From contig JAHFCF010000002.1 in the NCBI GenBank assembly GCA_023249645.1, forward strand, positions 1 through 64,000: a DNA stretch of 64,000 bases, written 5' to 3'. Origin of the DNA: Elusimicrobiota bacterium (GTDB lineage Bacteria > Elusimicrobiota > Elusimicrobia > UBA1565 > UBA9628). The translations under genes and the position numbers were made by a program. The notes under the pieces were generated by a model that was not told the origin of the DNA, ran no database searches, and was given only the letters and a program-made list of their open reading frames with translations. Of this stretch, positions 1-52,683 are shown in pieces. Within the stretch, counting starts at the first letter, position 1. The number at the start of each line of letters is the position of its first letter.

Positions 1-2826
1 AAGACGAGGCTGCATTTTGAATACTCTGGCAAGAAAATCGACGAGTTCCTTGGGGATCGAAACAGATCGAGAGGCGACAAGTTGTTGGTACGACTCAAAG
101 ACTGCATCGGGGGGAACCCATGGGTGTCCATTCTCTGATGATGCGTTCATAAACTTGATTCTACTTCCAAGGATATCCGCATAGTCCTCCATTTCCTTGC
201 GCAATCTTTTCTCTATCTTGGGAGTTTGATCCCCTCCGGAGGCCGCAAAGCGCCGGATGGCCTGATACACCAGCTCTTCCAATCCCTGGCGCGTATTGGC
301 CAAAGGCAAGACCTGCCTGATAGACTGACAAAGCTTATGAATATCCGCTTCAAAAGTCTTGGCATCACTTTTCTCGCCGCACCAATAGCGCTGTTTGCAA
401 AGCAATATCAGTATGTTCTTGATGCCCTGATGCGTACGGGTACGAAAAGAGCGCTTCTGAAGAGACAGCTTCAGATTGGTATTAAAAAATTCACGCACAG
501 ATGCGACGGGGTAGTCAGCGCCCATTTCCACGGCGGCCGCCACACCACTCAATACTTCCAAATAAGAAGCTGTTGATTCCTTCAATCTCTTTTGCGACTC
601 TTGCCTCTCTTCTAGATCAAGATCAACTGGGAGGCTGATTCTGGATATCAATCGGGCTATATGCAAGGCTGCTGCTTCCTCCGCCTTCTTCATCTGCTCA
701 GCATCCAAGGACCCCATCAGGCTCGCCAATCGATCGCGAGCGAAGGCCTTTTCTTCGCCGGGCAAGAGCAGGAACGCGGCCGCATACCGCGCATAGACTT
801 TTGCCAGCGGGCCCCCGCTTGTATTGCCGAGACGGAATCTTGGATTGAACAACCCCCACTTCAAAAGCCCAGGAGCCACCTCCACGCCGAAACGCTCCTC
901 GGCGATCTTCACGGCCAGGTCCGCCACCTTCTTCATCCGGCGGGCCACCCACATGGCGCGCATGATCTCCAGATATTCTCCCGCGCCCTCATAGGCCCGC
1001 AGCCCGTCCAATTTGGGGAGGATCCGGCCCAACTGGTCCAGATCGACTTTGCCGCTCTCGATCTCCAAGATGCTTTGAAACAGCCTGGCTCGGACTTCGT
1101 GGACCGCTGATTGCCACAAACCCTCGACTTCTTTCTTAAAATCATTTAGCTTTTCCACACCGAGCCAATGAGGCTTAAATCTGACCCATGTCAGCACCCT
1201 ATCAGCCAGCAGCCTACCCACAGGCTCCAGCGCGAAAAGCTCCGCCTCTGTGGTGAGATCAAAGAACCGTATTTTGGTGAAAGTGCTTTCTTTCTTCCAA
1301 TCCGACCCGAAGTAATATTCCAAGAGCTCTTTAAATTCTTTCAGCCAAGGAGCATCGCTGGGCATGGGCTTGAAGGAGTGGATGGCCAGTTCGCTGCTTG
1401 AAAACTGGATGGAACGAGGGGCTTCCTTGATCAACTCAGACGGCCAAGCGAAATGAGATCGATACTCCGCGAGAATGGATTCAAATCCATCGGCCACGGT
1501 TTCGACTTTGGCATCGATGCTGTGGTCCGTAGGGTCGTATTTCAAAAGACCGGGCAGTGCGGCTAGCGCGGCCTTGCATCTCGACACAAGATCGCGCTGG
1601 CTCCACATGAACTGGAGATAGCCCAGCGGAAGCAGGGGGGCACTGCCCAGCACGAGCTCTTCAAGGACTTTTCTGCGCTGGACAAAATCCGTGGAAGACA
1701 CCTGCTGCAGCCTCCAGTCATAATAATCCTTGATCCTTAAAATGTGCGTGGCGAGATCCAAATTCCATCTCCGCTCAAACTCCTGCAGATATTCGTACTC
1801 CATCCCCTCGGATATTTCCGGCGCTTCGTGGAAGCCCTTGCTCGCGACCCGGCCTCCTTTCTTTGCCGGCTTGCCGTCATTGGAGAAGCGGCGGCGGGAA
1901 ACGAGTTCACCCAGAGAGCCCCGGGCCGAGAGATCGAAGAGGAGATGCCTGCGATCCAACTCCGCTCCGGCGCCTCTCAGGAATTGAAAAGATGGGATCA
2001 CTTCTCGAAGCTTCAGCTCGCGTATTTTCTGCGCCGCCTCTATCGGAGCGGGATCCGAAGCAATGTCTTTTTTGTCATACGCGCTTAAAGGAAGCCGGCT
2101 GTCGAAGATCGTGGTCCCATCCGGCTTCTTCATCGTCAACGCTTCACCTTCGCCGATCTGAATGGTCTGCTGGCCATCGGTCTTGACGACCCCTTTCTCG
2201 TCATAGGAAACCGCGTAAAATCCCTCCGAGAGCGCCCGCACATGCCCCTGCACAGCTTCCATGAGGAGTTTCGGCTCCATGGCCGCCAAGAGACTACCGA
2301 CAGCCGCCAACTGGTTTCTTTTATTCTGCGCCAAGAAATACCTATCCCGTCTTTCCAGCGACTCCGCTTTCCATTGATACTCGGCCACGTTGCCCCAGTT
2401 GATCTCCGCTGCAGAGACGCGCTTTAAATAATCAGCCGCCTCCCGCTCCGCGTCCTTCTCTGTCTGGGCAAAAGCCGCCTTGGCCAAGCGCAAGGCCCTT
2501 TTCTCAGGCTCCTCTTTCTTGCCGTCGATCATCAGATCCGGAGCGTTCATCAATGCGCGGCTGTTCCTCATGAATCTGTCGACATAATAACCGTCGCTGT
2601 TGATATCGATTTTCACCAGCTCATCCATGGCCAAAGGCAGCCCCAGCTTGGCGGCTCCATCCTGACGAATCGCTTGGTAGACAGATGCCATGAAAGGAGG
2701 TGGGTAAGTCCAGCCCTCACTAAAGACGACTCCTGCCAGTGCCGGCTGGACAGAGGCAAAGACAAGACAGCCAGAGAGAAGGCCTGCCATGACCTTATGA
2801 AAGAAGTCTGGTATGTGCCTGGTCAT
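1..2826 (-). CDS. Large exported protein of unknown function, partial (runs off left edge); paralogue of the next gene
   Basis: The reading frame is open from an ATG at 2826 to the window edge (942 codons, no stop), so the C-terminus is missing. The N-terminus has basic residues, a hydrophobic core and an AxA-like site (VQPALAG), a Sec signal peptide. It is clearly related to the gene at 2826-7313: both share the stretches SRRRFSNDGKPAKKGG, IKDYYDWRL, FSSSELAI and QSILEIESGK in the same order. It lacks about 30 residues that in the neighbour hold a CxxC pair. Its ATG overlaps the neighbour's TGA as ATGA, so it is translationally coupled and last in the operon here. I recognise no family. The near-identical motifs in tandem argue for local gene duplication followed by divergence; there is no frameshift, so I do not call it a pseudogene. 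Confidence 0.8.
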   Translation of the reverse strand, partial: MTRHIPDFFHKVMAGLLSGCLVFASVQPALAGVVFSEGWTYPPPFMASVYQAIRQDGAAKLGLPLAMDELVKIDINSDGYYVDRFMRNSRALMNAPDLMIDGKKEEPEKRALRLAKAAFAQTEKDAEREAADYLKRVSAAEINWGNVAEYQWKAESLERRDRYFLAQNKRNQLAAVGSLLAAMEPKLLMEAVQGHVRALSEGFYAVSYDEKGVVKTDGQQTIQIGEGEALTMKKPDGTTIFDSRLPLSAYDKKDIASDPAPIEAAQKIRELKLREVIPSFQFLRGAGAELDRRHLLFDLSARGSLGELVSRRRFSNDGKPAKKGGRVASKGFHEAPEISEGMEYEYLQEFERRWNLDLATHILRIKDYYDWRLQQVSSTDFVQRRKVLEELVLGSAPLLPLGYLQFMWSQRDLVSRCKAALAALPGLLKYDPTDHSIDAKVETVADGFESILAEYRSHFAWPSELIKEAPRSIQFSSSELAIHSFKPMPSDAPWLKEFKELLEYYFGSDWKKESTFTKIRFFDLTTEAELFALEPVGRLLADRVLTWVRFKPHWLGVEKLNDFKKEVEGLWQSAVHEVRARLFQSILEIESGKVDLDQLGRILPKLDGLRAYEGAGEYLEIMRAMWVARRMKKVADLAVKIAEERFGVEVAPGLLKWGLFNPRFRLGNTSGGPLAKVYARYAAAFLLLPGEEKAFARDRLASLMGSLDAEQMKKAEEAAALHIARLISRISLPVDLDLEERQESQKRLKESTASYLEVLSGVAAAVEMGADYPVASVREFFNTNLKLSLQKRSFRTRTHQGIKNILILLCKQRYWCGEKSDAKTFEADIHKLCQSIRQVLPLANTRQGLEELVYQAIRRFAASGGDQTPKIEKRLRKEMEDYADILGSRIKFMNASSENGHPWVPPDAVFESYQQLVASRSVSIPKELVDFLARVFKMQPRL

Positions 2827-5800
2827 CATAAGTAGGTAATCTTCCCGGCGTTTTCTGGATTGGGTGGCCGCATAAGATCGGCAAAATCCTTTCTCAGTTT
2901 CCTCAGCTTGTCGACTATTTCTTTAAAGCCAGGCTTGGCCGACCATGTGCCGCTTTTATCGTCCCGCTGAGCTAACATCCTCCGGAGTTCTTCTGGGGGA
3001 GCCTCCTGCGCTTTTTTATAGAACACAGCCCTCAAGACCTCCAAACTCTCGACGTTCTTCCTAAAAGAACCGCCGCCCAAGGAGAGCATCCCCTGCTTGG
3101 CCTTGGGATTGATGTCCCGCACCTCGCCATAAAAAGAAGCCAGCTGTGCCAAGCCGATCAGACCGGGACATCTCTGGCTGGCCAACACGGCCATCTCTCC
3201 CAGCTTCTTTAATGTGAAGGAAAGCACCTCCTCTTTGGAATCGTCGAATTTTCCCTCCTTATCCCAATTCAGAATGAATGCAATTGTCCCGAATCCTTCC
3301 TTTAGAAAAGGAACAAACTCTTGGGAGATCATATCTGACCGCACGTCGATCAGCTGTTTATACAGATCCAATGTATCCCTGATCCGTCTTTTGGGAAACC
3401 AGCCATGCGGCAATTGGATGGAGTTATCGAGGTCAAGCCGCACGATCTCATAGAGAGGCCAACTGCTCCAACCCGGTTCCAGCGTTCTGTCCTTGGGCAA
3501 ATGAGCCGTCATAATCTCCAGCAATATCCGTTCGAAGTCCTTAGATGCGATTTGCGGACTATCATTTAATACTTGGCTGATTTTTTGAGCGCTTTCAAAA
3601 GCAGCCTGAGAGTCAAAACGGTTGGAAGCCTTCAAAGACTCGGCCAATTTCACCAATGACTCCGTGCTTTCCTGCGTGGATTTTTGCGAAACGCCCGCTT
3701 TCCTTGTTCCTATTTCTGGATACTGGAAGTGCATGGCGTCAGAGAAATCCTTGCTCTGTTTCTCCAGCCTAGCGACGATGTCTGCATACTCGGGCTTGGC
3801 CGACCATTTCTCGCTTTCGGCATCCAATTTTGCGAGAGCCTCCCTCACCGCTTCGACGTGAGCTGCCCGAGCCCACTCATAGATCGCCTCGCGCAAATTG
3901 GCCTTGGTATCTTCGATGTTCTTCCTAAGATGATTGCTTCTCAAAAGCGGCACCATGCCGACCTGGTGGGCGTCCAGAGCCGCAGAATTGATGGAACACA
4001 AACCGCGCTCAAACGAAGCCAACTCGGCGAACGACAACAGAGCAGGCCGCTGTTTAGAAACCAGGGCCATGATCTCACTTAATTGTTTCAAGGCAAAAGC
4101 CAATGCCTCGTCCCCTTCGCGATCCCCAAGCCCGCCGAAGGACGACCGGAGAACAATCGGCTGTGTGCCGAATCCTGCCTCCTGCAAGAAAAAAAGATTT
4201 AGAGAAATCGCATCCGGACTGGATGCGATCAACTGCTTGTACTGGTCGAAGGCGTCTCTGATCCGCTTGGTGGGAACCCAGCCATCCGGTGTCTGTTCCC
4301 GATATTCTGGGGCGAGCGGATGGATACTGCTTGACAGACGAGAAGAATAGTCCTCATCACCACGCTTAGGCGTGCGCACTCTATCCTTGAATTTTAAAAA
4401 ATAGCCCCTTATTTCCTTACGCAATTTCTCCTCCACGCTCTTGGAATCGGTTTCGATAGCCGTTGGCGGCCTTGAAGCCTTCCAGGGATCTCCACTCGCC
4501 GGGGCTTTATCCCATCTCTCTCGCGCAAAGCGATTGATCGCCTGCTGAAATATCTCTTCCAATCCCTCCGGCGTATTGGCCAAACTCAAAGACTGCCTGA
4601 CAGACTGGAATAGTGTCTGCATATCCGCTCTAAAGCTTCCCTTGGCCTGGGCAGAATCATAATGATAGGAGAAGAGCTTCACTAGGGTAGTCCTCAGCAA
4701 GACCAACTCAGGATAAGCAGTACCGAGAGTCTCCTTGTCAAGATTCAGGGCCTTGATCGTTCTATCGTCAAAAGTTTTTTGGTTCTCCACCAAGGGCCGT
4801 TGTTCCACTGCTTCCATAAGCCGCAATGCCTCAAAATAAGGCGCGCGCACTTTCTCCGTCTCCTTGTCCGACGCTTCTTTTACTTCCTGGTCGCTATCTT
4901 TCTCCCGACTGATTTTTGCGAGCAGCTTGGCGATCAGCAAAGCTGTCTTTTCCTCCGCCCTCCGCAGCGCATCCGGATGCAGGGAACCCAAGCTCTGCGC
5001 CAATGCCTGGCCAGGAAAAATCTTGCCAGTGCCGGGAAAGAGCAGGAACGCTGCCGCATACAGCGCGTAGATGTTTTCCTGCGGGACCTTATCCTTATCA
5101 GCCAGGAAAAGAGGGGGGACATGAGCGGGATTGAACAACCCCAATTTCAAGAGGCGAGCCACTCCCGGCGCCACCTCCACCCCAAAACGCTCCTCGGCAA
5201 GCTGCACCGCCCGGTCCGCCACCTTCTGCATGCGGCGCGCCACCCACATGGTGCGCATGGTGTCCAGCAACTCTACCGCGCCCTCATAGAGGTTGAGCCC
5301 TTGCAATTTGGGGAGGATCTGGCCCAGCTGGTCGACATCGATCTTCCCGCTCTCGATCTCCAGAATGCTTTGGAACAGCCTGGCTTGAACTTCCGGGGCC
5401 GCGGATTTCCCAAACTCATTGACTTCATCCATGAATTTGTACTGCTCCTCTATCTTCATCAGGTCCGTCAAATTTCTTCTCCCTTTCAACTTCCTGTCTC
5501 CCCAAGCCATCTGGCTCAGCGGCCCTAGCGCGACAAGCATGGTTGCATCGGTTAAATCGGAGAATCTTATCCTATTGAAAAAGACCTCCTCCTTCCCTCT
5601 CGTTTTATATGGGTTGAGATACTCAAAAGATTTTGCAAGCGCTTGGACCCAAGCAGCATCGCTAGGCGCCGGCTTGAAGGAATTGATGGCCAATTCGCTG
5701 CTGGAAAACTTCACAGGAACGGACTGTCCGGCGAGCGCCTTCATGCATAACATATTTGTCACGCCATACAGGGGCAGCCCGAGGGCGCGGTGTACGAGAC

Positions 5801-7313
5801 AAGACGCGCACACAGTCCCGCCATCCTTGCCCAGAAAATCCAACATGGAAAAATACGATTTATACTCTTCAAGAATGAGCTTGAAATCTCCAATGGCGGA
5901 GGAGATCGGGTCAGGGCAGATCATCACATGCGCAAGGACCGGGTGGGTGAATGCGGGCCCGATCGAGACATTCTCCGATATAGCCTCTAGGGCGGATTGA
6001 ACTAAACCCAGAGGAAGCAAGGGAGCGCTGCCCAGCGCAAGCTCCACCAGGACCTTCCGACGCTGGATGAAATCTGTGGCCGGCACCTGCTCCAGCCTCC
6101 AATCGTAATAATCCTTGATCTTTAAAATATGCACAGCGAGGTCTCTATCCAATTTCTCCTTGAACTTGCGGAGCTCCGCAGACTCCATCCCCTCGGCTGT
6201 TTCCGGCTCTTCGCGAAATCCCTTGCTCGCGAGCCGCCCTCCTTTCTTTGCCGGCTTGCCATCATTGGGGAAACGGCGCCGGGAGACGATCTCAGAAAGA
6301 GAGCCCCGGGGCGAGAGATTGAACTCGAGATTCCTCTGATCCAACGTCATTCCATACCCTCTCAGGATTTCGAAAGATGGGATCACCTCACGGAGCTTGA
6401 GCTCATGAATCTTCCGAGACTCCTTCGTTTCCAGGAGACCAGGCTTCCCAGAGAAATCCGTTTGGGCGATCTTTTGCTGATAGGCAGCCACCGTCTCGCT
6501 GCTCGACCTCGGCACCCGGCTGTCAAAAACCGTCTCACCGGCATCGGTCTTCACCACGAGGGTCTTCCCTTCATCCATCAAGGTCAAGGTCCCCTTATCC
6601 CGGGTTGTCACGAAGGTTTCCTGCCCCTTCTCAGAAGTTTCGAAGGAGACGGTCTGGTGTCCTTCCGTAACCGCCCGGAGATGGCCCTGGATAGATTCAA
6701 AGGCGAGTTGAGGCTCCTGAGCCTCCAAAAGACTCTTCACAGCCATCAGCTGGTGGCTTCTCGTCACCGTCAGAAAATATTTGTTCCTTTCCGCGATTTT
6801 CTCAGCTTCCTCTTTGTAGGCGGCCACATTGCCCCAGTTGAGCTCCGCTTGAGAGACCCTCTGCAAATAATCAACCGCCTCCTGCTCCGCGTCCTTCTCC
6901 GTCTTCGCAAAAGCCTCTTCAGCCAGTCTCAGATTCTTTTGCTCCGCGTGCTCTTTGACGCCATTCCTGATCCTGCCAGGGTCTTTATTCAACGCTTCTC
7001 GATTCTGGATGAATTTTTCGACATAGATCGCATTCGTGTCCTTGGAAAATCCAAGCGCGGCCAATTGATTGAACTGCACCGGCAGTCCAAGGTTTTCAGC
7101 TCCTTGATCACGGATCATTCGAAAGGCGGAATGAAGGGAATCAGGCAGCATGGCAAAGGGATTGCGTCGAACGGGATCCTGGACACTGGTATGTGTGCTC
7201 CCCCCAAGCATTCCATTGGGACCCGCGAAGGCCGGTTGGAGAGAGGAAAAAACCAAGCAGCCAGAGAGAAAAGCCGCCAAGGTTTTATGGATAAAAACTA
7301 CCTTTCCATTCAT
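2826..7313 (-). CDS. Very large exported protein of unknown function (1495 aa) with C-terminal internal duplication
   Basis: A 1495-residue protein with a Sec-type signal peptide (basic start, LAAFLSGCLVFSSLQPAFAG). Most of the chain is charged and predicted helical, with many Lys/Glu-rich segments (about residues 100-190 and 340-400). Around residues 495-530 there is a cysteine-bearing segment (CASC and a later Cys) that is absent from the tandem paralogue. The last third holds two related blocks, about residues 1011-1194 and 1304-1481, sharing KRIRD, YKQLI, FGT, LASF, RKN and WSAKP. No catalytic motif or transmembrane segment beyond the signal was seen, so it is probably periplasmic, at the cell surface or secreted. 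It follows lptB by 96 bases, in which lies an array of three short dyad repeats. Function unknown; it could be a scaffold or surface protein, but that is a guess. Confidence 0.85.
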   Translation of the reverse strand: MNGKVVFIHKTLAAFLSGCLVFSSLQPAFAGPNGMLGGSTHTSVQDPVRRNPFAMLPDSLHSAFRMIRDQGAENLGLPVQFNQLAALGFSKDTNAIYVEKFIQNREALNKDPGRIRNGVKEHAEQKNLRLAEEAFAKTEKDAEQEAVDYLQRVSQAELNWGNVAAYKEEAEKIAERNKYFLTVTRSHQLMAVKSLLEAQEPQLAFESIQGHLRAVTEGHQTVSFETSEKGQETFVTTRDKGTLTLMDEGKTLVVKTDAGETVFDSRVPRSSSETVAAYQQKIAQTDFSGKPGLLETKESRKIHELKLREVIPSFEILRGYGMTLDQRNLEFNLSPRGSLSEIVSRRRFPNDGKPAKKGGRLASKGFREEPETAEGMESAELRKFKEKLDRDLAVHILKIKDYYDWRLEQVPATDFIQRRKVLVELALGSAPLLPLGLVQSALEAISENVSIGPAFTHPVLAHVMICPDPISSAIGDFKLILEEYKSYFSMLDFLGKDGGTVCASCLVHRALGLPLYGVTNMLCMKALAGQSVPVKFSSSELAINSFKPAPSDAAWVQALAKSFEYLNPYKTRGKEEVFFNRIRFSDLTDATMLVALGPLSQMAWGDRKLKGRRNLTDLMKIEEQYKFMDEVNEFGKSAAPEVQARLFQSILEIESGKIDVDQLGQILPKLQGLNLYEGAVELLDTMRTMWVARRMQKVADRAVQLAEERFGVEVAPGVARLLKLGLFNPAHVPPLFLADKDKVPQENIYALYAAAFLLFPGTGKIFPGQALAQSLGSLHPDALRRAEEKTALLIAKLLAKISREKDSDQEVKEASDKETEKVRAPYFEALRLMEAVEQRPLVENQKTFDDRTIKALNLDKETLGTAYPELVLLRTTLVKLFSYHYDSAQAKGSFRADMQTLFQSVRQSLSLANTPEGLEEIFQQAINRFARERWDKAPASGDPWKASRPPTAIETDSKSVEEKLRKEIRGYFLKFKDRVRTPKRGDEDYSSRLSSSIHPLAPEYREQTPDGWVPTKRIRDAFDQYKQLIASSPDAISLNLFFLQEAGFGTQPIVLRSSFGGLGDREGDEALAFALKQLSEIMALVSKQRPALLSFAELASFERGLCSINSAALDAHQVGMVPLLRSNHLRKNIEDTKANLREAIYEWARAAHVEAVREALAKLDAESEKWSAKPEYADIVARLEKQSKDFSDAMHFQYPEIGTRKAGVSQKSTQESTESLVKLAESLKASNRFDSQAAFESAQKISQVLNDSPQIASKDFERILLEIMTAHLPKDRTLEPGWSSWPLYEIVRLDLDNSIQLPHGWFPKRRIRDTLDLYKQLIDVRSDMISQEFVPFLKEGFGTIAFILNWDKEGKFDDSKEEVLSFTLKKLGEMAVLASQRCPGLIGLAQLASFYGEVRDINPKAKQGMLSLGGGSFRKNVESLEVLRAVFYKKAQEAPPEELRRMLAQRDDKSGTWSAKPGFKEIVDKLRKLRKDFADLMRPPNPENAGKITYL

Positions 7314-7349
7314 TTCCTTAATAGTGTAAGGAAACCAGGAAAATCCGCA

Positions 7350-7412
7350 GGTGTCTTTAGACCTAGAAAGGAGGGTAAAAAGGACCTATTTCAAGATGGG
7401 TCCAAAGCCCTA
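7350..7412 (-). repeat. Array of three TAGGnC...CC dyad repeats upstream of the 1495-aa gene
   Basis: Read on the minus strand, the copies are TAGGGCTTTGGACCC (7412-7398), TAGGTCCTTTTTACCC (7388-7373) and TAGGTCTAAAGACACC (7365-7350), with starts 24 and 23 bases apart. The TAG of the first copy is the stop codon of lptB. The last copy ends 36 bases before the ATG at 7313. Similar arrays precede the genes starting at 25285, 40474 and 52608. Whether it acts as DNA (operator) or RNA (leader) cannot be told from sequence. Confidence 0.6.
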
Positions 7413-23386: not shown

Positions 23387-23418
23387 GTGTCAGGCTTTCT
23401 CGTATTTTCCGTATTTTT
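23386..23418. repeat. Dispersed repeat copy A, between two convergent stops
   Basis: Reads GGTGTCAGGCTTTC then TCGTATTTTCCGTATTTTT on the plus strand. It fills the gap between the TAG of the AsmA-like gene and the TAA of the metzincin gene. Related copies are at 32895-32929 and 55049-55080, all in the same orientation; a weak fourth may be at 40776-40800. Confidence 0.7.
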
Positions 23419-25285
23419 ATCTACTGCCCGCAAGCAGCAAGGACATGGCCTTGAGTAAGTCGAGAGGCGTAACGGCTCTGGCGGCACCTCCCATAATGTT
23501 GTTGGGAAAGTTAATTTCCCGGAATGTGTGCCGACGAGTATCATAAATATACTCATACTCATCCGGCAGGCCCAGAATATGGCCAAACTCATGGGCCGGC
23601 GTCTGGAATGCCATCTCACGGCCGATCGCAATCCCATCTGGTTGGGCATGGGCGGATAAGGCACCGGCCTCGATAAGCCGCAAGCTCCCAGAAGAGAAGC
23701 TCTCTCCTGGACTCAAGCGGCGCACGCTGATCTCTGTCCGAAAAGTATAGGGTTGGCCATCGACCTCGAATTCTCCCTGCCAATAATGCTCGATGGAGGC
23801 TTGGACGTATCCGGGCACGCGTTCTTCCTGTATATCCGTCTCGAAATGCCCCTGAAGGAGAAATCCTCCTGAAACCTGGGTAAGACGCAGATTCTTATTG
23901 TGCGGAATCCAAAGCGGTTGATGCGGCTTTCCGTAATGCTCTCCGGGGGCCATGAATTCATTAATGAGCCGGTTTCCGGTATAGTGATCAAGGTTCAAGG
24001 CAAGCACCTTCAGCCTTCGACTCATTGTTTCCACATAATGCTGCAAGTTCGTCAATGCTCGCGTCCGCATTGCCCGGGGGAACCGCCCATCCAAGGAAAC
24101 GATACGATGGCGCTGAATGCGTTTTTCAACGTTAAAAATCCGTTCGTCCAATTGTTTTGATTTTTTTCTTGAGCTATAGCTATGCTCCTTCCGATCTTGC
24201 TCACCCTCTGCCGGCAGCAACTTCTCAAACTCTTCAAGCGTACCCAGATGCCAGATCTTATCACCACTTGCCTGCATCAACTGATGACTTCCCTTGGGAA
24301 TAAACGGCTTGATGAGCGTCTCTAGCCGTGCCATCTTATATCGGATCTCGCGCTCGCGCAATAATTCTTCAGACACAACGGGATTGACCAGGAAGCTTTG
24401 ATAAACATCCTTGGCCAAAGCCTTAACCTCCGGAGATACGCCGGGGGCCACTTGCACATCCCGCAGCATTTCTCTTGCATGCTGCTCTATGGCGACGAGA
24501 GCGCCGGCACGGGCTTCTGGAGGCTCCAAATCCCTTGCCCGCAGCATACCCACATAAAGTTTGCGAAGGAGAGCTCTAAGATAGCTGGGGTCCCGGGCCA
24601 AAAAAGAAAGTCTTGCATTTTTATCATCTATGGCTTTGGAAAGGAGAGCATCGACTTCCGGTGTGGCAATCGGAGGGAGATCTGTTACTTGAAATGCTGG
24701 TATGTCCCCAGTCGGAGGCATATCCTGAGCCGCAGATCGACGGCTCATGCGGCGAGGCATCGCCAATGCGGCCTCAGCCGAACCGGGAATGGTGGCCACA
24801 TGCCCCAACTCCGGCCGTTCTCCAGCGATCTGAGTCATGATCTGACGCGCCAAACCACTCAGTTCGATTTCCGACATCTGCTCCAGCTTTTCCGGCGTCA
24901 GCTGGTCCAAAATTCCCCGCGTTTGTGACAGGATCGCCTGGGCGGATAAAGGCGTCCCTGGCACGGTCAGAGTGAATTGACCCAAGTTGTTTTGTTCAAC
25001 TGCCGCAGAACGCTGAAGAAAGACAACGAGGTTCTCATTGAGCATTGGATGCAATGGCAATGAAGCGGGAGCCTCGGCACTCGGAGGCGCGGGCGACTGC
25101 GGTGCTTCCAGAGAGGAAAGTATGAAGCTGCGCACGGACAGAATCGGCGCTGCAAAAGCTGCAGGCACTCTGGCAGCCGAACCGTTCACACCGACAGCAC
25201 TGCCCGCAAAGGCAGAGATGGGCAAAGAAGCTACAGCAGGACTTAACGACAGGAGGAGGACTACCGAGCGAAGGATAGACTTCAC
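23417..25285 (-). CDS. Exported zinc metalloprotease of metzincin type
   Basis: A 622-residue protein with a signal peptide (SVVLLLSLSPAVASLPISAFAG). The C-terminal catalytic motif HEFGHILGLPDEY begins at about residue 565, giving three zinc ligands HExxHxxGxxD, and NNIMGG about 30 residues later (Met near 598) is a plausible Met-turn. The first 500 residues are mostly helical with an Ala/Pro-rich start and no known domain; they may be a large prodomain. Two of the dyad repeats and a hairpin lie in the 83 bases before its start. The gene is less GC-rich than the LPS genes around it. Substrate unknown; secreted or surface location inferred from the signal. Confidence 0.8.
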   Translation of the reverse strand: MKSILRSVVLLLSLSPAVASLPISAFAGSAVGVNGSAARVPAAFAAPILSVRSFILSSLEAPQSPAPPSAEAPASLPLHPMLNENLVVFLQRSAAVEQNNLGQFTLTVPGTPLSAQAILSQTRGILDQLTPEKLEQMSEIELSGLARQIMTQIAGERPELGHVATIPGSAEAALAMPRRMSRRSAAQDMPPTGDIPAFQVTDLPPIATPEVDALLSKAIDDKNARLSFLARDPSYLRALLRKLYVGMLRARDLEPPEARAGALVAIEQHAREMLRDVQVAPGVSPEVKALAKDVYQSFLVNPVVSEELLREREIRYKMARLETLIKPFIPKGSHQLMQASGDKIWHLGTLEEFEKLLPAEGEQDRKEHSYSSRKKSKQLDERIFNVEKRIQRHRIVSLDGRFPRAMRTRALTNLQHYVETMSRRLKVLALNLDHYTGNRLINEFMAPGEHYGKPHQPLWIPHNKNLRLTQVSGGFLLQGHFETDIQEERVPGYVQASIEHYWQGEFEVDGQPYTFRTEISVRRLSPGESFSSGSLRLIEAGALSAHAQPDGIAIGREMAFQTPAHEFGHILGLPDEYEYIYDTRRHTFREINFPNNIMGGAARAVTPLDLLKAMSLLLAGSR

Positions 25286-25301
25286 CGTAAGAAGATTCTA
25301 T

Positions 25302-25307: not shown

Positions 25308-25324
25308 GACGCCCACCGCACTAT

Positions 25325-25385
25325 GAGTCTTTAGGGCCAAAAAGCGGCGGCAAAGGACCTAGGACTTTCTAGGTCCTTTGGACCC
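25325..25385 (-). repeat. Array of dyad repeats upstream of the metzincin gene, including an 11-bp hairpin
   Basis: Minus-strand copies: GGGTCCAAAGGACC (25385-25372), TAGGTCCTTTGCC (25361-25349) and GGCCCTAAAGACTC (25338-25325). Spacing is less regular (about 26 and 21) than in the other arrays. AAAGGACCTAG (25352-25362) and CTAGGTCCTTT (25369-25379) form a perfect 11-bp stem with a 6-base loop, and the waaA TAG stop (25371-25369) lies in it. It could end waaA transcription, regulate the protease, or both. Confidence 0.6.
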
Positions 25386-39466: not shown

Positions 39467-40474
39467 TCAATGGATGGGATTGACGCTGACGAAACTGAAC
39501 GCCTGCTGGAATTCTCTCTCCGTGACCGTGACCGACCATCCCTCTCCCTCCGGATCGCCCAGGGTCACTGTCCCGCGATCCTTGTTCACGGACCTCACCC
39601 AATAGGCGTGGCGAGGGCGCAACTTCGCGCTTCTGAAAATCGGCCAGGCGATCGCCAAGGCTGGCGGCAGGCTTCGAACGACGACGGCATAGCCCTTGCT
39701 CCCCCAATCCGACAGATCGGCGACAGAGGTCAGGCAGGCGGGACCAGAATAGATCCTGTTTTTTCCGGTAATCCTTTCCAGAGCCTCGTTGGGATCTCCG
39801 GCCACCACGGCATTGTAGGAGCCATTGCCAAAAGACATGGCAAAAGCCTTTTCAGCGATCATGACCCAGACAGATCCTCCCTTGCCGTAAGCGGCGAATA
39901 AGGGAGCGGGTGGAGACCCAGCGCTTCTCATGGGAAATCGATCATCCACCCGCAACCTTTCGGGGCCAAAGCCCGGCCCGCGGCTATAGAGAGTGACCGT
40001 GTAGGTCCCATCATGGTTGTCCTGGATCATGCGGCGTATAAAGTCAGGATCCTGGTCAGCGATCGCTCCCAACGCCGCCATGAGGTAGCAATCCCCGAGT
40101 TCTCCCTGCGCGATGTCGCCGGAACTTATCTTCTTGCCAAAAAGGGGCGCATCACCCGCTTGGGAATACCGGGCAGCGGGCATGTCACCGCAGCCGAAGA
40201 TCCAGAGCCGACAATCGACACCGCTGAAATCAGGCTGGTTGCGGTCCCGCGAAGGAAAAAGAAAGCGCTGCGGCGCCAGGAGCGCGTTCTCGACGGTGGG
40301 CGCATCGAACCCCGTGGCGATGGGAAGGGCTGTCTGAACGATGGTCTTGGCTGCGGAAAAAGAGGTCTCAAAAAACTTCCTGCCCGCATCCTTGGGATCC
40401 TCCAGACAGAAACCGCGGCTGGTTGTTGCCAGACAAATCATCACCAGGACACTGGCCCGAAAAAATCTTTTCAT
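39467..40474 (-). CDS. Exported calpain-like cysteine protease
   Basis: A 335-residue protein with a signal peptide (ASVLVMICLATTSRGFC). The calpain (C2) core is visible: catalytic Cys129 in QGELGDCYLMAALGAIAD, MIQDNHDGTYTVTLYS strand, WVMIAEKAFA and the catalytic His289 in RPRHAYWVRSV. The third residue, normally Asn in an RNPWG-like motif, is Asp here (LGDPEGEGW, about residue 307), so activity may be altered. No calcium-binding EF-hand or C2 domain follows. Located alone between yebC and tRNA-Arg, with two dyad repeats upstream. Secreted peptidase is the likely role. Confidence 0.8.
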   Translation of the reverse strand: MKRFFRASVLVMICLATTSRGFCLEDPKDAGRKFFETSFSAAKTIVQTALPIATGFDAPTVENALLAPQRFLFPSRDRNQPDFSGVDCRLWIFGCGDMPAARYSQAGDAPLFGKKISSGDIAQGELGDCYLMAALGAIADQDPDFIRRMIQDNHDGTYTVTLYSRGPGFGPERLRVDDRFPMRSAGSPPAPLFAAYGKGGSVWVMIAEKAFAMSFGNGSYNAVVAGDPNEALERITGKNRIYSGPACLTSVADLSDWGSKGYAVVVRSLPPALAIAWPIFRSAKLRPRHAYWVRSVNKDRGTVTLGDPEGEGWSVTVTEREFQQAFSFVSVNPIH

Positions 40475-40503: not shown

Positions 40504-40518
40504 AGGGTAGCTGACCCT
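40504..40518. repeat. Short hairpin upstream of the calpain gene
   Basis: AGGGT (40504-40508), loop AGCTG, ACCCT (40514-40518). It lies between the dyad repeats and the calpain start and may belong to the same leader structure. Confidence 0.4.
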
Positions 40519-40532
40519 CGCGATTCGCAACA

Positions 40533-40571
40533 GGGTCTTTGGGCCTAGCTGAAGCTGGTTCTTTAGACCTA
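40533..40571 (-). repeat. Two dyad repeats upstream of the calpain gene
   Basis: Minus-strand copies TAGGTCTAAAGAACC (40571-40557) and TAGGCCCAAAGACCC (40547-40533), starts exactly 24 bases apart. The nearer copy ends 58 bases before the ATG at 40474. The first nine bases of the distal copy equal those of the proximal copy upstream of the 1495-aa gene. Confidence 0.65.
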
Positions 40572-48795: not shown

Positions 48796-51700
48796 TTAGG
48801 GCTTGCGGATGCCGAGAAGGCGGGCCAGAGCGCCCAGCTTGGGCAGCAAGAGCAGGATAGCGCCGACCACCCCGATCTCAACGCCTGTTTCCACGGCGCG
48901 CCGGAAGGGAACGCCGTCTTTGGGTTTGGAAGCGGGGAAATCTCTTTTGTATTTGGTCAGCGGCATCAATCGGAAGACGGACTCATCACGCGCCGTCTCA
49001 TCGTCCGCAACCTGAGGAGCACTCTGGCTGAACTGGGACTGCATCTGAGGAGCTGCGGCCTGCGCAGGCGCCGAGGCCGTGGCCGCCTCTTTTTTGGCGA
49101 CAAAACGATTGGGCAGAGATGCCAAGGCCAGCACCGTGATTCTACTTCCTCCAGATGTCGAAGGAGCTGCTTTCATCGCGGCTTGGGCATCCGGATTGGC
49201 GTTGTCATAAGGGATGCTGTGGTCATGGCCGCCCACGATGGACGCGGCTTGCAGGACTGTGTTGTCCTTCTTGCTTGGCTCAGGAACAGGGGAGGACGAC
49301 GCTGGGCTGCCCGCTGCCAGAGAGGGGGAAGTCGGCTCTGCCGGAGCTGGGTTGTTGGCAGCGACACCGGCGGCCTCGGATCTGGCCGCATTGGCAGAAC
49401 CGACGCCGGCAGCGCTGCTCGGGCCTGCGCCGCCTCCAGCACCTCCGCCTCCAGCACCGCTCGCGCCTCCAGCTGACCCAGCACTGCCGCCGCCGCTCTC
49501 CGAAACCTGGGAATCACTGCTATGGGAGGACGATCCTCCGGACCTAGAAGAGCCGCCTCTGGCGCTTTCGCCGCGAAGGACTTTTGCGCTGGCCATTTTT
49601 GTGTCGGGTTTTTTTCCCTCAGGGCTGGCTCCCGATTTATTTTTCTGAGGTGCAGAACTGGCCTCTGGAGCGGTCCGCTCTTCCGTCTTCAGTGGCAGAG
49701 GGGGGATTACTTTTTCCGCTGGCGGTTCCTGCTGAAGCAAGCTGGAGGCCACAAAGCTGAGAGAGAGTTTATAGGCCGCTTCTCCAGGCAGAATGATTTT
49801 TGAGGGCTCCGGCAATGCCGCGAACCTTTTTTCAGGAGGGAGCATCTCCTCAGGCGTCATCTTCCAATCCTCCATGGCTTTGGTGTTCAAAAGTTCAGGC
49901 TGTTCCATTGCCGGGATGCTTTCCTTGGGGGCGAGATTCTTGGCAGGCTCTGTGGTCTCCGGCAGGTTGGCCAATTTGGGTTGCTTACGCTGCCATTGCC
50001 ACCACTTCTTCGGCTCGACATCTAAAAGTCTCAGTTGCTCGCTTTCCAAAGGCTTGTCGTTCTCCCTCTTTGCCTTCTGGTACAGCGACTTCAGATCAGA
50101 CCAGATATTCCCAAAGGACTTCGGTTGCTCGGCTGCCGCTTGAAGCGCTGGCTGCTCCACTGCTGGCTTAAGATTTGCTTGCTCCACCTCCAAGCCGGCT
50201 TTGGGAGCCTGTTCCTTGAGCGTCTCATGTCCTCCGGCAAAGATGACGATCAACGCCGCATCATCCACAACAGCGCGCATCTTTTGCGAGCATTCCCCAT
50301 TGCGCGTGGCGCAGGCATGCGCCGCCGAGGCAAAATCCCCGGCAACGCCTGTGCCCGCTGAAAAGGCCATCATCCCATAGGCCGTCTGGACCGGCCACTT
50401 CACGCCGTACCGGAACAAAGGCCCGGCATGAGCCACAGCATCGAGCTTTCGCATCCCTTTCACTGCCAAAGACAGACCCCCGAAACGAGCGATTGGCAAG
50501 AAGACCCAGGAGATGGGGTTGAGCAGACTTTGCGTCACATCCTCGGTGGAGCCGACAATGAAACCGGCCGTTTGCAAAGCCCACTTGCTCGGGCCCTGGC
50601 ACTCCTGCGCCAAGGCGTCCAGCTGTTTGCCATAGGTGCTCGCCCCATGATTCTCCCGCACGAAATCCAGGAGCTCCTGATCGCTCACCGGCGCGTGGAC
50701 CGCCTGCTCCAGCGCCTCCTGGGGCAGAGGATAGGAGGCCTTCTCCAATTGGCGCCGGCGCTGCGCGCGCAGCTCCTGGGCCAGCCTTTCCCGCGCCCCG
50801 ACACTCAGAAGATTGCCAGCGAGCGCCTGGCCTGCTTCCTGGCTCAGCAGCGCTCTTTTAGAGAGACTCCCCAAAGCTTCGATGCGCCAACGGTCAGGAT
50901 CTAGGATCTTGTCAGCAGATTTTTTATAACTTTCGTAGGTGAAACCCGGGACACCCCCCAGGATAGGCGCCGTTGTCAGATAAAGCCCCTGCGCCAACAT
51001 GACCACGATAGCCTGTCTCGCCGGCTCAAAGCTGATGGTCTCGGCGACCGTCCACTGAACCGCTCCCATGGCACCCGAGTAGGCGGTTGTGGCAAACATC
51101 TCCAATGGCTTCATCACATAAGAAAATCCAGCGCCCATCCAGGTCTTCCCTTCATGGACGAGGACGGAGCTTTTCTTGGCGACCCGTTCCTCGGGCAGAG
51201 CAGCCCATTTTTCGTCTGCGATCGACGGCAGCCAGTCGCGGATCTCCGTGTCATAGCGGACCTGCCGGACCAGGTAGACTTCTTCGAACATCTGCGTGTA
51301 GGCAAGCACCCAGCGGCGATTCTTCAGCTGGTTGCGAACCACCCAGACCCGCCGGGTATCGTCATCGGCATATTCCCATTGGCAGCCCAGGCGATACGGC
51401 TGCGACACGCCATCCGCGCCCACTTTCACGGGCCGCATCACGAGCAAGCTCGGCAGCCGCTTATCTTCCCACGGCGAGCCCAGGCCGGGCTGGACCGTGA
51501 CGATCTGCATCACGCTGTGCCGGTCCCGGGAAACGAACTGGAAGCTCTTGGTCGTTGAGTCGAAGGTCAGATGCGCTTCCACAGCGCCGTCCAGCTTGAA
51601 GTGGTCGAGGTCGCGCAAGAAATTGGCCAGGGGGACCAGAAGCTCGTCGAGCTGCAGCTGCGAGCTGAGCGCCGAGGCGATCTCGCGGGCGAAGGCCAGG

Positions 51701-52608
51701 CGCTGCTCATCGGAGAAATTCTGCAACTCGGCGATGTCGAAATCATAGCCTGAGACAGCGCCGCCAGGACCCAGCATCGCGGTCACATGCGGGCTGACGC
51801 GGCGCGGCTTGGCGCTTTGGGGGGAAACCGCTTGGACAAAGACCTCGCCGTTTCCGCGCACGGCGGTGTACAAGATCTGCAGGGGCCCGCGGTTGAGATG
51901 AAGATCCGAGGAGACCGGGCCTCCCTCGGCGGCCGAATCGCCCAGGGCTGCGACATGGACATGGAAGCCAGTGACATCCTTGGGCTTGCCCTGGTATTGC
52001 ACTGGAATGGGCTTGCCGCTGGCATCCACCACGATCACGGGCAGATCATTGCGCAGGTCCTGAAGGGACTTGAGGATCTCCTTTTTATCTCTCAGGTGCT
52101 CGAAATTTCCGAAATTATCGAAGATCCGTCCCAACTTTTCAGGATGATCCTGGGCATTATCAGCCGCTTCGAAAAGACCGGACATCAGCTCGGACACTGT
52201 CTGGATCGCATCAGCGCTCGTAGAAGCAGCCTGAACTAGGCGGGCGATCCTGGGATCGACCGATCTTGTGGAAAAGAATCTCCTGCTCTGGTAGAGGATC
52301 GTGCGCAGCCTCTGGATCTCAGAGGCGATCTGCTTCCTTTTATAGGAAGGGACGGAGGCATCGCTCAAAAATCTCTTCTCGATCTCCTCAAGACGATTCT
52401 GGAGCTTATCCAACGACTGCGCGTCGGATTTCCCGGTCAAATATCCGATGACATCGCGTCCCAGCGCATCGACATTCCCTTGGATGCCCAGCGGAACGTT
52501 GAAAAGGCCTGCATCAGCCGGCCCCGCCGCCGCCGGGCTGGGCGCAAAAAAGCCCCCGAGAGCCAGGGCGCAGAACAAGCCAGAGGCCAGCATGGAGGAC
52601 CGTCTCAT
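48796..52608 (-). CDS. Very large exported protein of unknown function with Ser/Gly linker and C-terminal membrane anchor (1270 aa)
   Basis: Signal peptide at the N-terminus (LASGLFCALALGGFFAPSPAAA). Residues about 60-200 are helical and charged. The middle has hydrophobic stretches (QAIVVMLAQGLYLTTAPILG; PVQTAYGMMAFSAGTGVAG) that may be membrane segments. About residues 820-1000 are rich in Pro, Glu and Lys. Residues about 1030-1110 are low-complexity Ser/Gly/Ala. The chain ends in a hydrophobic helix and basic tail (GVEIGVVGAILLLLPKLGAL then RIRKP-like residues), which could be an anchor or sorting signal. No family recognised. Three dyad repeats fill its leader. Confidence 0.8.
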   Translation of the reverse strand: MRRSSMLASGLFCALALGGFFAPSPAAAGPADAGLFNVPLGIQGNVDALGRDVIGYLTGKSDAQSLDKLQNRLEEIEKRFLSDASVPSYKRKQIASEIQRLRTILYQSRRFFSTRSVDPRIARLVQAASTSADAIQTVSELMSGLFEAADNAQDHPEKLGRIFDNFGNFEHLRDKKEILKSLQDLRNDLPVIVVDASGKPIPVQYQGKPKDVTGFHVHVAALGDSAAEGGPVSSDLHLNRGPLQILYTAVRGNGEVFVQAVSPQSAKPRRVSPHVTAMLGPGGAVSGYDFDIAELQNFSDEQRLAFAREIASALSSQLQLDELLVPLANFLRDLDHFKLDGAVEAHLTFDSTTKSFQFVSRDRHSVMQIVTVQPGLGSPWEDKRLPSLLVMRPVKVGADGVSQPYRLGCQWEYADDDTRRVWVVRNQLKNRRWVLAYTQMFEEVYLVRQVRYDTEIRDWLPSIADEKWAALPEERVAKKSSVLVHEGKTWMGAGFSYVMKPLEMFATTAYSGAMGAVQWTVAETISFEPARQAIVVMLAQGLYLTTAPILGGVPGFTYESYKKSADKILDPDRWRIEALGSLSKRALLSQEAGQALAGNLLSVGARERLAQELRAQRRRQLEKASYPLPQEALEQAVHAPVSDQELLDFVRENHGASTYGKQLDALAQECQGPSKWALQTAGFIVGSTEDVTQSLLNPISWVFLPIARFGGLSLAVKGMRKLDAVAHAGPLFRYGVKWPVQTAYGMMAFSAGTGVAGDFASAAHACATRNGECSQKMRAVVDDAALIVIFAGGHETLKEQAPKAGLEVEQANLKPAVEQPALQAAAEQPKSFGNIWSDLKSLYQKAKRENDKPLESEQLRLLDVEPKKWWQWQRKQPKLANLPETTEPAKNLAPKESIPAMEQPELLNTKAMEDWKMTPEEMLPPEKRFAALPEPSKIILPGEAAYKLSLSFVASSLLQQEPPAEKVIPPLPLKTEERTAPEASSAPQKNKSGASPEGKKPDTKMASAKVLRGESARGGSSRSGGSSSHSSDSQVSESGGGSAGSAGGASGAGGGGAGGGAGPSSAAGVGSANAARSEAAGVAANNPAPAEPTSPSLAAGSPASSSPVPEPSKKDNTVLQAASIVGGHDHSIPYDNANPDAQAAMKAAPSTSGGSRITVLALASLPNRFVAKKEAATASAPAQAAAPQMQSQFSQSAPQVADDETARDESVFRLMPLTKYKRDFPASKPKDGVPFRRAVETGVEIGVVGAILLLLPKLGALARLLGIRKP

Positions 52609-52621
52609 GACTTTAGTGTAT

Positions 52622-52683
52622 GCCCATAAGACCTAGGCCCTCTAGGGCCATAAGACCTAGGCCTTCCTAGGTCTTAAGTCCTA
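52622..52683 (-). repeat. Most regular dyad array: three copies at exact 24-bp spacing
   Basis: Minus-strand copies TAGGACTTAAGACC (52683-52670), TAGGTCTTATGGCCC (52659-52645) and TAGGTCTTATGGGC (52635-52622), starts 24 and 24 bases apart. The spacers between them (TAGGAAGGCC, TAGAGGGCC) are alike too. The last copy ends 13 bases before the ATG at 52608, so the array fills nearly the whole predicted leader RNA. Confidence 0.75.

What the first reader, a model, noticed from the sequence alone, without database searches (positions are those of the whole stretch)
52622..52683. Periodic 24-bp dyad array (TAGGnC...GnCC) filling the leader of a large exported protein
Three copies at exact 24-base spacing lie between a good promoter and the ATG at 52608, with even the spacers alike. 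The same dyad family occurs as arrays before three other exported-protein genes (7313, 25285, 40474) and nowhere obvious before housekeeping genes. Copies share TAGG, a C two bases on, and a closing CC, with a variable A/T-rich or AAAG centre, and two-helical-turn spacing. This looks like an undescribed regulon signal or leader RNA element for secreted proteins.
Basis: partly seen in the sequence, partly recalled or inferred. Interest (0 to 1): 0.78.

Follow-up and report, generated by a model that had tools for sequence, protein, structure and literature searches.

The report
Promoter-box arrays for exported-protein genes
In a whole class of little-studied bacteria (Elusimicrobia), genes for exported proteins share a strictly spaced row of mirror-image DNA boxes just upstream of the promoter, which most likely dock a conserved two-component activator and so mark out a large, undescribed secretion regulon.

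Summary
The array is real and far from chance. The 16-bp dyad TRGGTCYWWRGACCYA recurs 2-5 times at 22-25 bp spacing. I found 38 arrays in 648 kb of the genome and 17 in 390 kb of unselected hold-out stretches (none in the reversed control), so about 100 genome-wide. It is restricted to class Elusimicrobia: 82 class genomes, none in the other classes of the phylum.

The array is not in a leader. A -10 hexamer lies typically 22 nt DOWNSTREAM of the proximal dyad, often with the start codon 6 nt later, so dyads centre at -42.5, -66 and -89. All four window arrays obey this. For 52608 the -10 is TACACT at 52620-52615. The two sides of the dyad do not covary, which argues against an RNA element. 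Downstream genes are strongly enriched for signal peptides (33/40 versus 166/480).

Best explanation: activator boxes for a NarL/FixJ-type response regulator (67-84% identical across the class, linked to dCache and REC histidine kinases). It is present in 78 of 82 array-bearing genomes. The layout matches BvgA promoters, where dimers sit every 22 bp and the last abuts -35. CRP, LysR, GntR and TetR families are each missing from some array-bearing genomes. Binding itself is untested.

The parts
52668..52683 (-). dyad 1 (distal) TAGGACTTAAGACCTA, promoter of 52608 gene
   Evidence: PWM 21.4 bits
52644..52659 (-). dyad 2 TAGGTCTTATGGCCCT; ends 23 nt before the -10, so it is the functional proximal dyad (centre about -43.5)
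   Evidence: PWM 18.0 bits; spacing rule
52620..52635 (-). dyad 3 TAGGTCTTATGGGCAT, lies in the -35/-10 spacer, abuts/overlaps the -10
   Evidence: PWM 12.7 bits
52615..52620 (-). -10 hexamer TACACT; 6 nt before ATG 52608 (leaderless or nearly so)
48796..52608 (-). 1270-aa exported protein, signal peptide MRRSSMLASGLFCALALGGFFAPSPAAA; no Pfam family
7350..7412 (-). array of three dyads (7397-7412, about 7373-7388 weak, 7350-7365)
7323..7328 (-). -10 TACACT, 21 nt after the array, 9 nt before ATG 7313
2826..7313 (-). 1495-aa exported protein, no Pfam family
25324..25385 (-). array of three dyads (25370-25385, 25346-25361 half-strong, 25324-25339)
25295..25300 (-). -10 TAGAAT, 23 nt after the array, 9 nt before GTG 25285
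23417..25285 (-). 622-aa exported protein, no Pfam family
40532..40571 (-). array of two dyads (40556-40571, 40532-40547)
40504..40509 (-). -10 TACCCT, 22 nt after the array; ATG 40474 29 nt further
39467..40474 (-). 335-aa exported calpain-family (Peptidase_C2) protein
   Evidence: E 8.5e-18

Best explanation
The array is double-stranded-DNA binding sites for an activator, not a leader element. Each 16-bp dyad (two inverted heptamers, TRGGTCY-WW-RGACCYA) binds one head-to-head dimer. Two or three dimers stack every 22-24 bp, with the last one (centre -42.5) abutting or replacing the -35, and recruit sigma-70-type RNA polymerase to a -10 box 22 nt further on. The transcript often starts at or within a few bases of the start codon of a Sec-exported protein. 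Shown: the dyads, spacing, -10 phasing, signal-peptide enrichment and class-wide conservation. Inferred: that the activator is the class-conserved NarL/FixJ-type response regulator (own copies G000:C8:4647-5315 and G000:C19:95872-96543), phosphorylated by the linked dCache-HAMP and REC-hybrid histidine kinases, so that an extracytoplasmic signal switches on a large set of exported proteins together.
For: Fixed geometry: TAnnnT occurs at 22 nt after the array in 24 of 75 flanks (mean per offset 0.96) in the own genome, 56 of 250 (mean 4.6) in other Elusimicrobiota, and with no peak in chance hits from other phyla; hold-out 15 of 38 (mean 0.66, two arrays counted twice). Dyad centres -42.5, -65.5/-66.5, -89.5; in other Elusimicrobiota the proximal dyad runs into a TTG -35. 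Signal peptides 33/40 versus 166/480, p 5e-9. No covariation between the two dyad halves. Divergent promoters share arrays. Regulator: the orthologue group is 67-84% identical to the own copy, REC + GerE, linked in a cluster to dCache-HAMP-HisKA and REC-HisKA-HATPase kinases. It is present in 78 of 82 array-bearing genomes, and families f6, f9, f10, f11 and all other classes lack arrays and the close orthologue. CRP family absent from G056 (arrays present). LysR absent from six array genomes, GntR over cut-off in only three, TetR absent from own, G226, G200. Closest solved relatives VraR, DevR, NarL. BvgA: head-to-head dimers on inverted heptads every 22 bp, last one abutting -35 (PMC7250471).
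Against: No binding or expression data. Co-occurrence of regulator and arrays could simply follow one clade. 50 sampled genomes carry the regulator without a strict array match, and family f2 has three copies but few strict arrays. The regulator's own promoter has arrays in one relative only (L205, where no clean phased -10 was found) and not at the own copies. At 52608 the third dyad sits in the core-promoter spacer, unlike most arrays. Not every transcription-factor family was screened (OmpR, MarR, MerR, XRE and others were not).
Confidence: 0.68

Rival explanations
1. The same promoter arrays, but bound by a different dyad-binding activator not screened here (for example a MarR-, MerR-, XRE- or novel-type factor).
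For: The DNA evidence does not name the protein; only five families were screened.
Against: The 7-2-7 symmetry, 22-24 bp tandem spacing and abutting of -35 are those of NarL/FixJ activators; the NarL orthologue is the only screened family present in every array-rich genome tested.
Confidence: 0.22
2. A leader RNA: tandem hairpins in the 5' UTR acting as a riboregulator or protein-binding site, transcribed from the promoter-like TTGCAT/TACTAT upstream of the array.
For: The 52608 leader folds well (z -4.7) and a consensus-like promoter lies upstream.
Against: Inverted repeats fold by construction. Positions 5/12 show no covariation in 93 and 169 dyads. The -10 is downstream of the array across the class. 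Arrays serve both strands. No Rfam match.
Confidence: 0.05
3. Dispersed repetitive palindromes (REP/MITE-like) that happen to lie between genes.
For: Many copies, palindromic, intergenic.
Against: Spacer sequences are not conserved between copies, position relative to -10 and start codon is fixed, downstream genes are non-random, and the geometry is conserved across many families of the class.
Confidence: 0.02
4. Repressor operators rather than activator sites.
For: Dyads near the core promoter can also repress; at 52608 one dyad overlaps the spacer and the -10.
Against: The usual proximal position (-42.5) and the lack of a -35 in the own genome (best -35 score no better than background) fit activation.
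Confidence: 0.07

Closest known systems
BvgA-activated promoters of Bordetella (fha promoter; PMC7250471)
   Same: NarL/FixJ response regulator; head-to-head dimers on inverted heptads; three dimers, 22-bp centre-to-centre, last one abutting -35
   Different: Here every dyad is recognisable, spacing is mostly 23-24, the box is TRGGTCY not TAAGAAA-like, and it occurs before about 100 genes per genome in an unrelated phylum
E. coli NarL/NarP 7-2-7 sites
   Same: Two inverted heptamers separated by 2 bp; DNA-bound response-regulator dimer
   Different: Different heptamer (TACYYMT, own knowledge) and no regular 24-bp arrays
CRP/FNR class II activator promoters
   Same: Dyad centred near -41.5 replacing the -35
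   Different: No CRP-family protein in some array-bearing genomes; 24-bp tandem arrays
VraR / DevR / NarL proteins (solved structures)
   Same: Nearest solved relatives of the candidate regulator by sequence
   Different: The candidate's recognition helix region SVKTIKNHLNS is its own; DNA target not determined

Membership tests
NarL/FixJ response-regulator promoter array (BvgA-like) | Inverted heptamers separated by 2 bp | tested here: met
   PWM: T R G G T C Y - W W - R G A C C Y A
NarL/FixJ response-regulator promoter array (BvgA-like) | Dimer sites repeated about every two helical turns | tested here: met
   22-25 bp, mostly 24 and 22/23
NarL/FixJ response-regulator promoter array (BvgA-like) | Proximal site abuts -35 of a sigma-70-type promoter | tested here: met
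   Centre -42.5, -10 TAnnnT at 22 nt; TTG directly at the dyad end in other Elusimicrobiota
NarL/FixJ response-regulator promoter array (BvgA-like) | Genome encodes a REC-GerE response regulator with cognate kinase, conserved with the arrays | tested here: met
   78 of 82 array genomes
NarL/FixJ response-regulator promoter array (BvgA-like) | The phosphorylated regulator binds the dyads and activates | not testable with these tools
   no binding or expression data
CRP/FNR-type class II promoters | A CRP/FNR-family protein in every genome with the sites | tested here: not met
   0 HTH_Crp_2 matches in G056, which has arrays
Structured leader RNA / riboswitch | Compensatory base changes in the stems | tested here: not met
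Structured leader RNA / riboswitch | Element lies downstream of the transcription start | tested here: inconclusive
   -10 boxes lie downstream of the arrays by sequence; starts not mapped
Sigma-54 enhancer sites | -24/-12 promoter and sigma-54 in the lineage | tested here: not met
   Promoters carry TATAAT-like -10 at fixed distance; sigma-54 reported absent from Elusimicrobium minutum (PMC3162934)

The most novel reading that the evidence does not exclude
One ancient two-component relay (dCache kinase, REC-kinase, NarL-type regulator) acts as a general switch for the exported proteome of class Elusimicrobia, driving about half of the promoters of Sec-exported proteins through a rigid multi-dyad promoter code that feeds leaderless or near-leaderless transcripts.
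Probability: 0.35. Interest if true: 0.75.

Novelty: new member of a known kind. Interest (0 to 1): 0.62.

Why it matters
Elusimicrobia are mostly uncultured and their exported proteins are mostly unannotated (20 of the 24 regulon proteins checked match no Pfam family). A base-exact promoter signature lets anyone list the co-regulated exported proteins in any genome of the class, and names one candidate regulator to test. It also shows that BvgA-type stacked-dimer promoters can be a genome-wide code rather than a handful of promoters.

Tried and rejected
Leader-RNA reading: rejected (no covariation, -10 downstream, no Rfam match). CRP-family regulator: rejected (absent from G056, which has arrays). 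LysR, GntR, TetR: absent from several array-bearing genomes. Chance matches in other phyla (Caulobacter, Okeania, Rhizobium and others): no -10 phasing, treated as chance. Autoregulation of the regulator as proof: dyads at 202, 245 and a half-site at 269 upstream of the paralogue in L205, but without a clean phased -10 and not at the own copies, so not used. A covariance model was not built because the pair statistics already argued against RNA. The first 648 kb were partly chosen around pattern hits, so the 390-kb hold-out was taken to check the rule. Literature searches found no prior description, but many subscription papers are not held.

Full report
WHAT IS THERE. On the minus strand before the ATG at 52608 lie three 16-bp dyads at exact 24-base spacing: TAGGACTTAAGACCTA, TAGGTCTTATGGCCCT and TAGGTCTTATGGGCAT. 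The same family stands before 7313, 25285 and 40474. The window lies in a 2.27-Mb genome of 38 contigs. Exact pair matches in named genomes are mostly Elusimicrobia.

MORE THAN CHANCE. I took stretches totalling 648 kb (window included) and refined a weight matrix, giving T-R-G-G-T/C-C-Y-W-W-R-G-R-C-C-Y-A. Sites scoring at least 8 bits pair at 22-25 bp 56 times and at 45-48 bp 30 times; in the reversed sequence neither occurs. Clean-up leaves 38 arrays, 23 of them with three dyads. Twenty further stretches (390 kb), not chosen by motif, gave 19 calls (17 distinct arrays) and 0 in the reversed control. That extrapolates to about 100 arrays per genome. A strict pair pattern has matches in 82 of 248 genomes of the phylum, all 82 in the window's class, with 0 matches of the backwards-read control in any genome.

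WHERE IT SITS. Aligning the arrays shows otherwise. TAnnnT stands at exactly 22 nt after the array in 24 of 75 flanks of the own sample (mean per offset 0.96), in 56 of 250 flanks of other Elusimicrobiota (mean 4.6), with no such peak at the chance pattern hits of other phyla, and again in 15 of 38 hold-out flanks (mean 0.66; two arrays counted twice). Taking the first base of the hexamer as -12, dyads centre at -42.5, -65.5/-66.5 and -89.5. In other Elusimicrobiota the end of the proximal dyad runs into TTG at a 17-bp spacer, i.e. it abuts the -35. In the own genome the -35 is no better than background. The commonest gap between -10 and start codon is 6 nt, which predicts leaderless or nearly leaderless transcripts. 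All four window arrays fit: offsets 21 (7313), 23 (25285), 22 (40474), and 23 from the second dyad for 52608, whose -10 is TACACT at 52620-52615 with the ATG six bases on. In that last case the third dyad lies in the core-promoter spacer.

DNA, NOT RNA. In 93 own and 169 other dyads the two variable partners 5/12 agree no more often than in shuffles (0.33 against 0.36; 0.35 against 0.33), and the centre avoids self-complementary TA/AT in favour of TT or AA. The good fold of the 52608 stretch follows from its inverted repeats. Rfam finds nothing there. Several arrays serve two divergent promoters.

WHAT IT CONTROLS. With a simple signal-peptide rule, 33 of 40 genes just downstream of arrays score positive against 166 of 480 others (p 5e-9), and against 40 of 139 array-less genes with a comparable upstream gap. 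32 of the 72 signal-peptide genes that head a unit have an array. My rule is crude, but the contrast is large, and the non-exported genes are mostly on the other side of a shared intergenic region. Of 24 such proteins scanned, 20 match no Pfam family; the others are a calpain-type peptidase, an esterase, an M3/M49 peptidase and a PLD-like protein.

WHAT BINDS IT (inferred). The layout is that of BvgA promoters: head-to-head NarL/FixJ dimers on inverted heptads, every 22 bp, the last abutting -35 (PMC7250471). Screening array-bearing genomes, CRP-family proteins are missing from G056, LysR from six of fourteen, GntR passes its cut-off in three, and TetR is missing from the own genome, G226 and G200. 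GerE proteins are in every array-rich genome tested. One GerE orthologue group is 67-84% identical to the own copy, with SVKTIKNHLNS in the recognition-helix region. It scores strongly in 128 sampled genomes and in 78 of the 82 with arrays. The four exceptions are draft genomes (84-96% complete) from genera whose other members have it. Families f6, f9, f10, f11 and all other classes have neither the close orthologue nor arrays. It sits in a cluster after a dCache-HAMP-HisKA kinase and a REC-HisKA-HATPase kinase. Its closest solved relatives are VraR, DevR and NarL. The weak points: one clade could carry both by descent, 50 genomes have the regulator without a strict array match, and no binding has been shown.

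KNOWN OR NEW. As a kind of thing, stacked response-regulator dimers at a sigma-70-type promoter are known. This box, its class-wide range and its exported-protein regulon were not found described, with the caveat that the library lacks most subscription papers. I therefore call it a new member of a known kind, with the array-promoter rule shown by sequence and the regulator's identity inferred.

Noticed in passing
window:52608, 7313, 25285; L039, L042, L043, L051, L063, L065 promoters: The start codon commonly follows the -10 hexamer by only 6-7 nt, predicting leaderless mRNAs for many exported proteins; a uvrB-like gene (L063:16429, named from its N-terminus by eye) shows the same gap, so leaderless starts may be general in this genome.
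   Followed up: partly
own arrays, e.g. 25346-25361, L042, L051, L053, L060: In three-dyad arrays the middle site is often strong only on its upstream half (TAGGTCCTTTGCC), with oriented spacing 24 then 22 or 23, so the array is polar towards the promoter.
   Followed up: partly
L258, L259, L262, L271: The candidate regulator is linked to two histidine kinases and, downstream, to proteins with N-termini like TadE/TadG (RGQATTEVVLLFP...; ...LVPIVLLVIYLIFETAKLS), which had no confident Pfam match.
   Followed up: partly
L041:5098-19998: A giant open frame of at least 4967 aa with an N-terminal hydrophobic segment lies on the plus side of an array; it runs to the end of the fetched stretch.
   Followed up: no
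dyad centre, positions 7-10: The centre is an AAA or TTT run (TTTG, CAAA, CTTT) in either orientation rather than a symmetric TA/AT step, so each dyad is slightly polar.
   Followed up: partly
family f2 genomes (G023, G024, G026, G028): These carry three copies of the candidate regulator but almost no strict array matches, so the box may have drifted there.
   Followed up: no
non-Elusimicrobiota pattern hits (loci such as L085, L086, L125): The same array caller finds runs of up to 5-7 copies in some of these non-Elusimicrobiota loci, without a phased -10; they look like unrelated tandem repeats.
   Followed up: no
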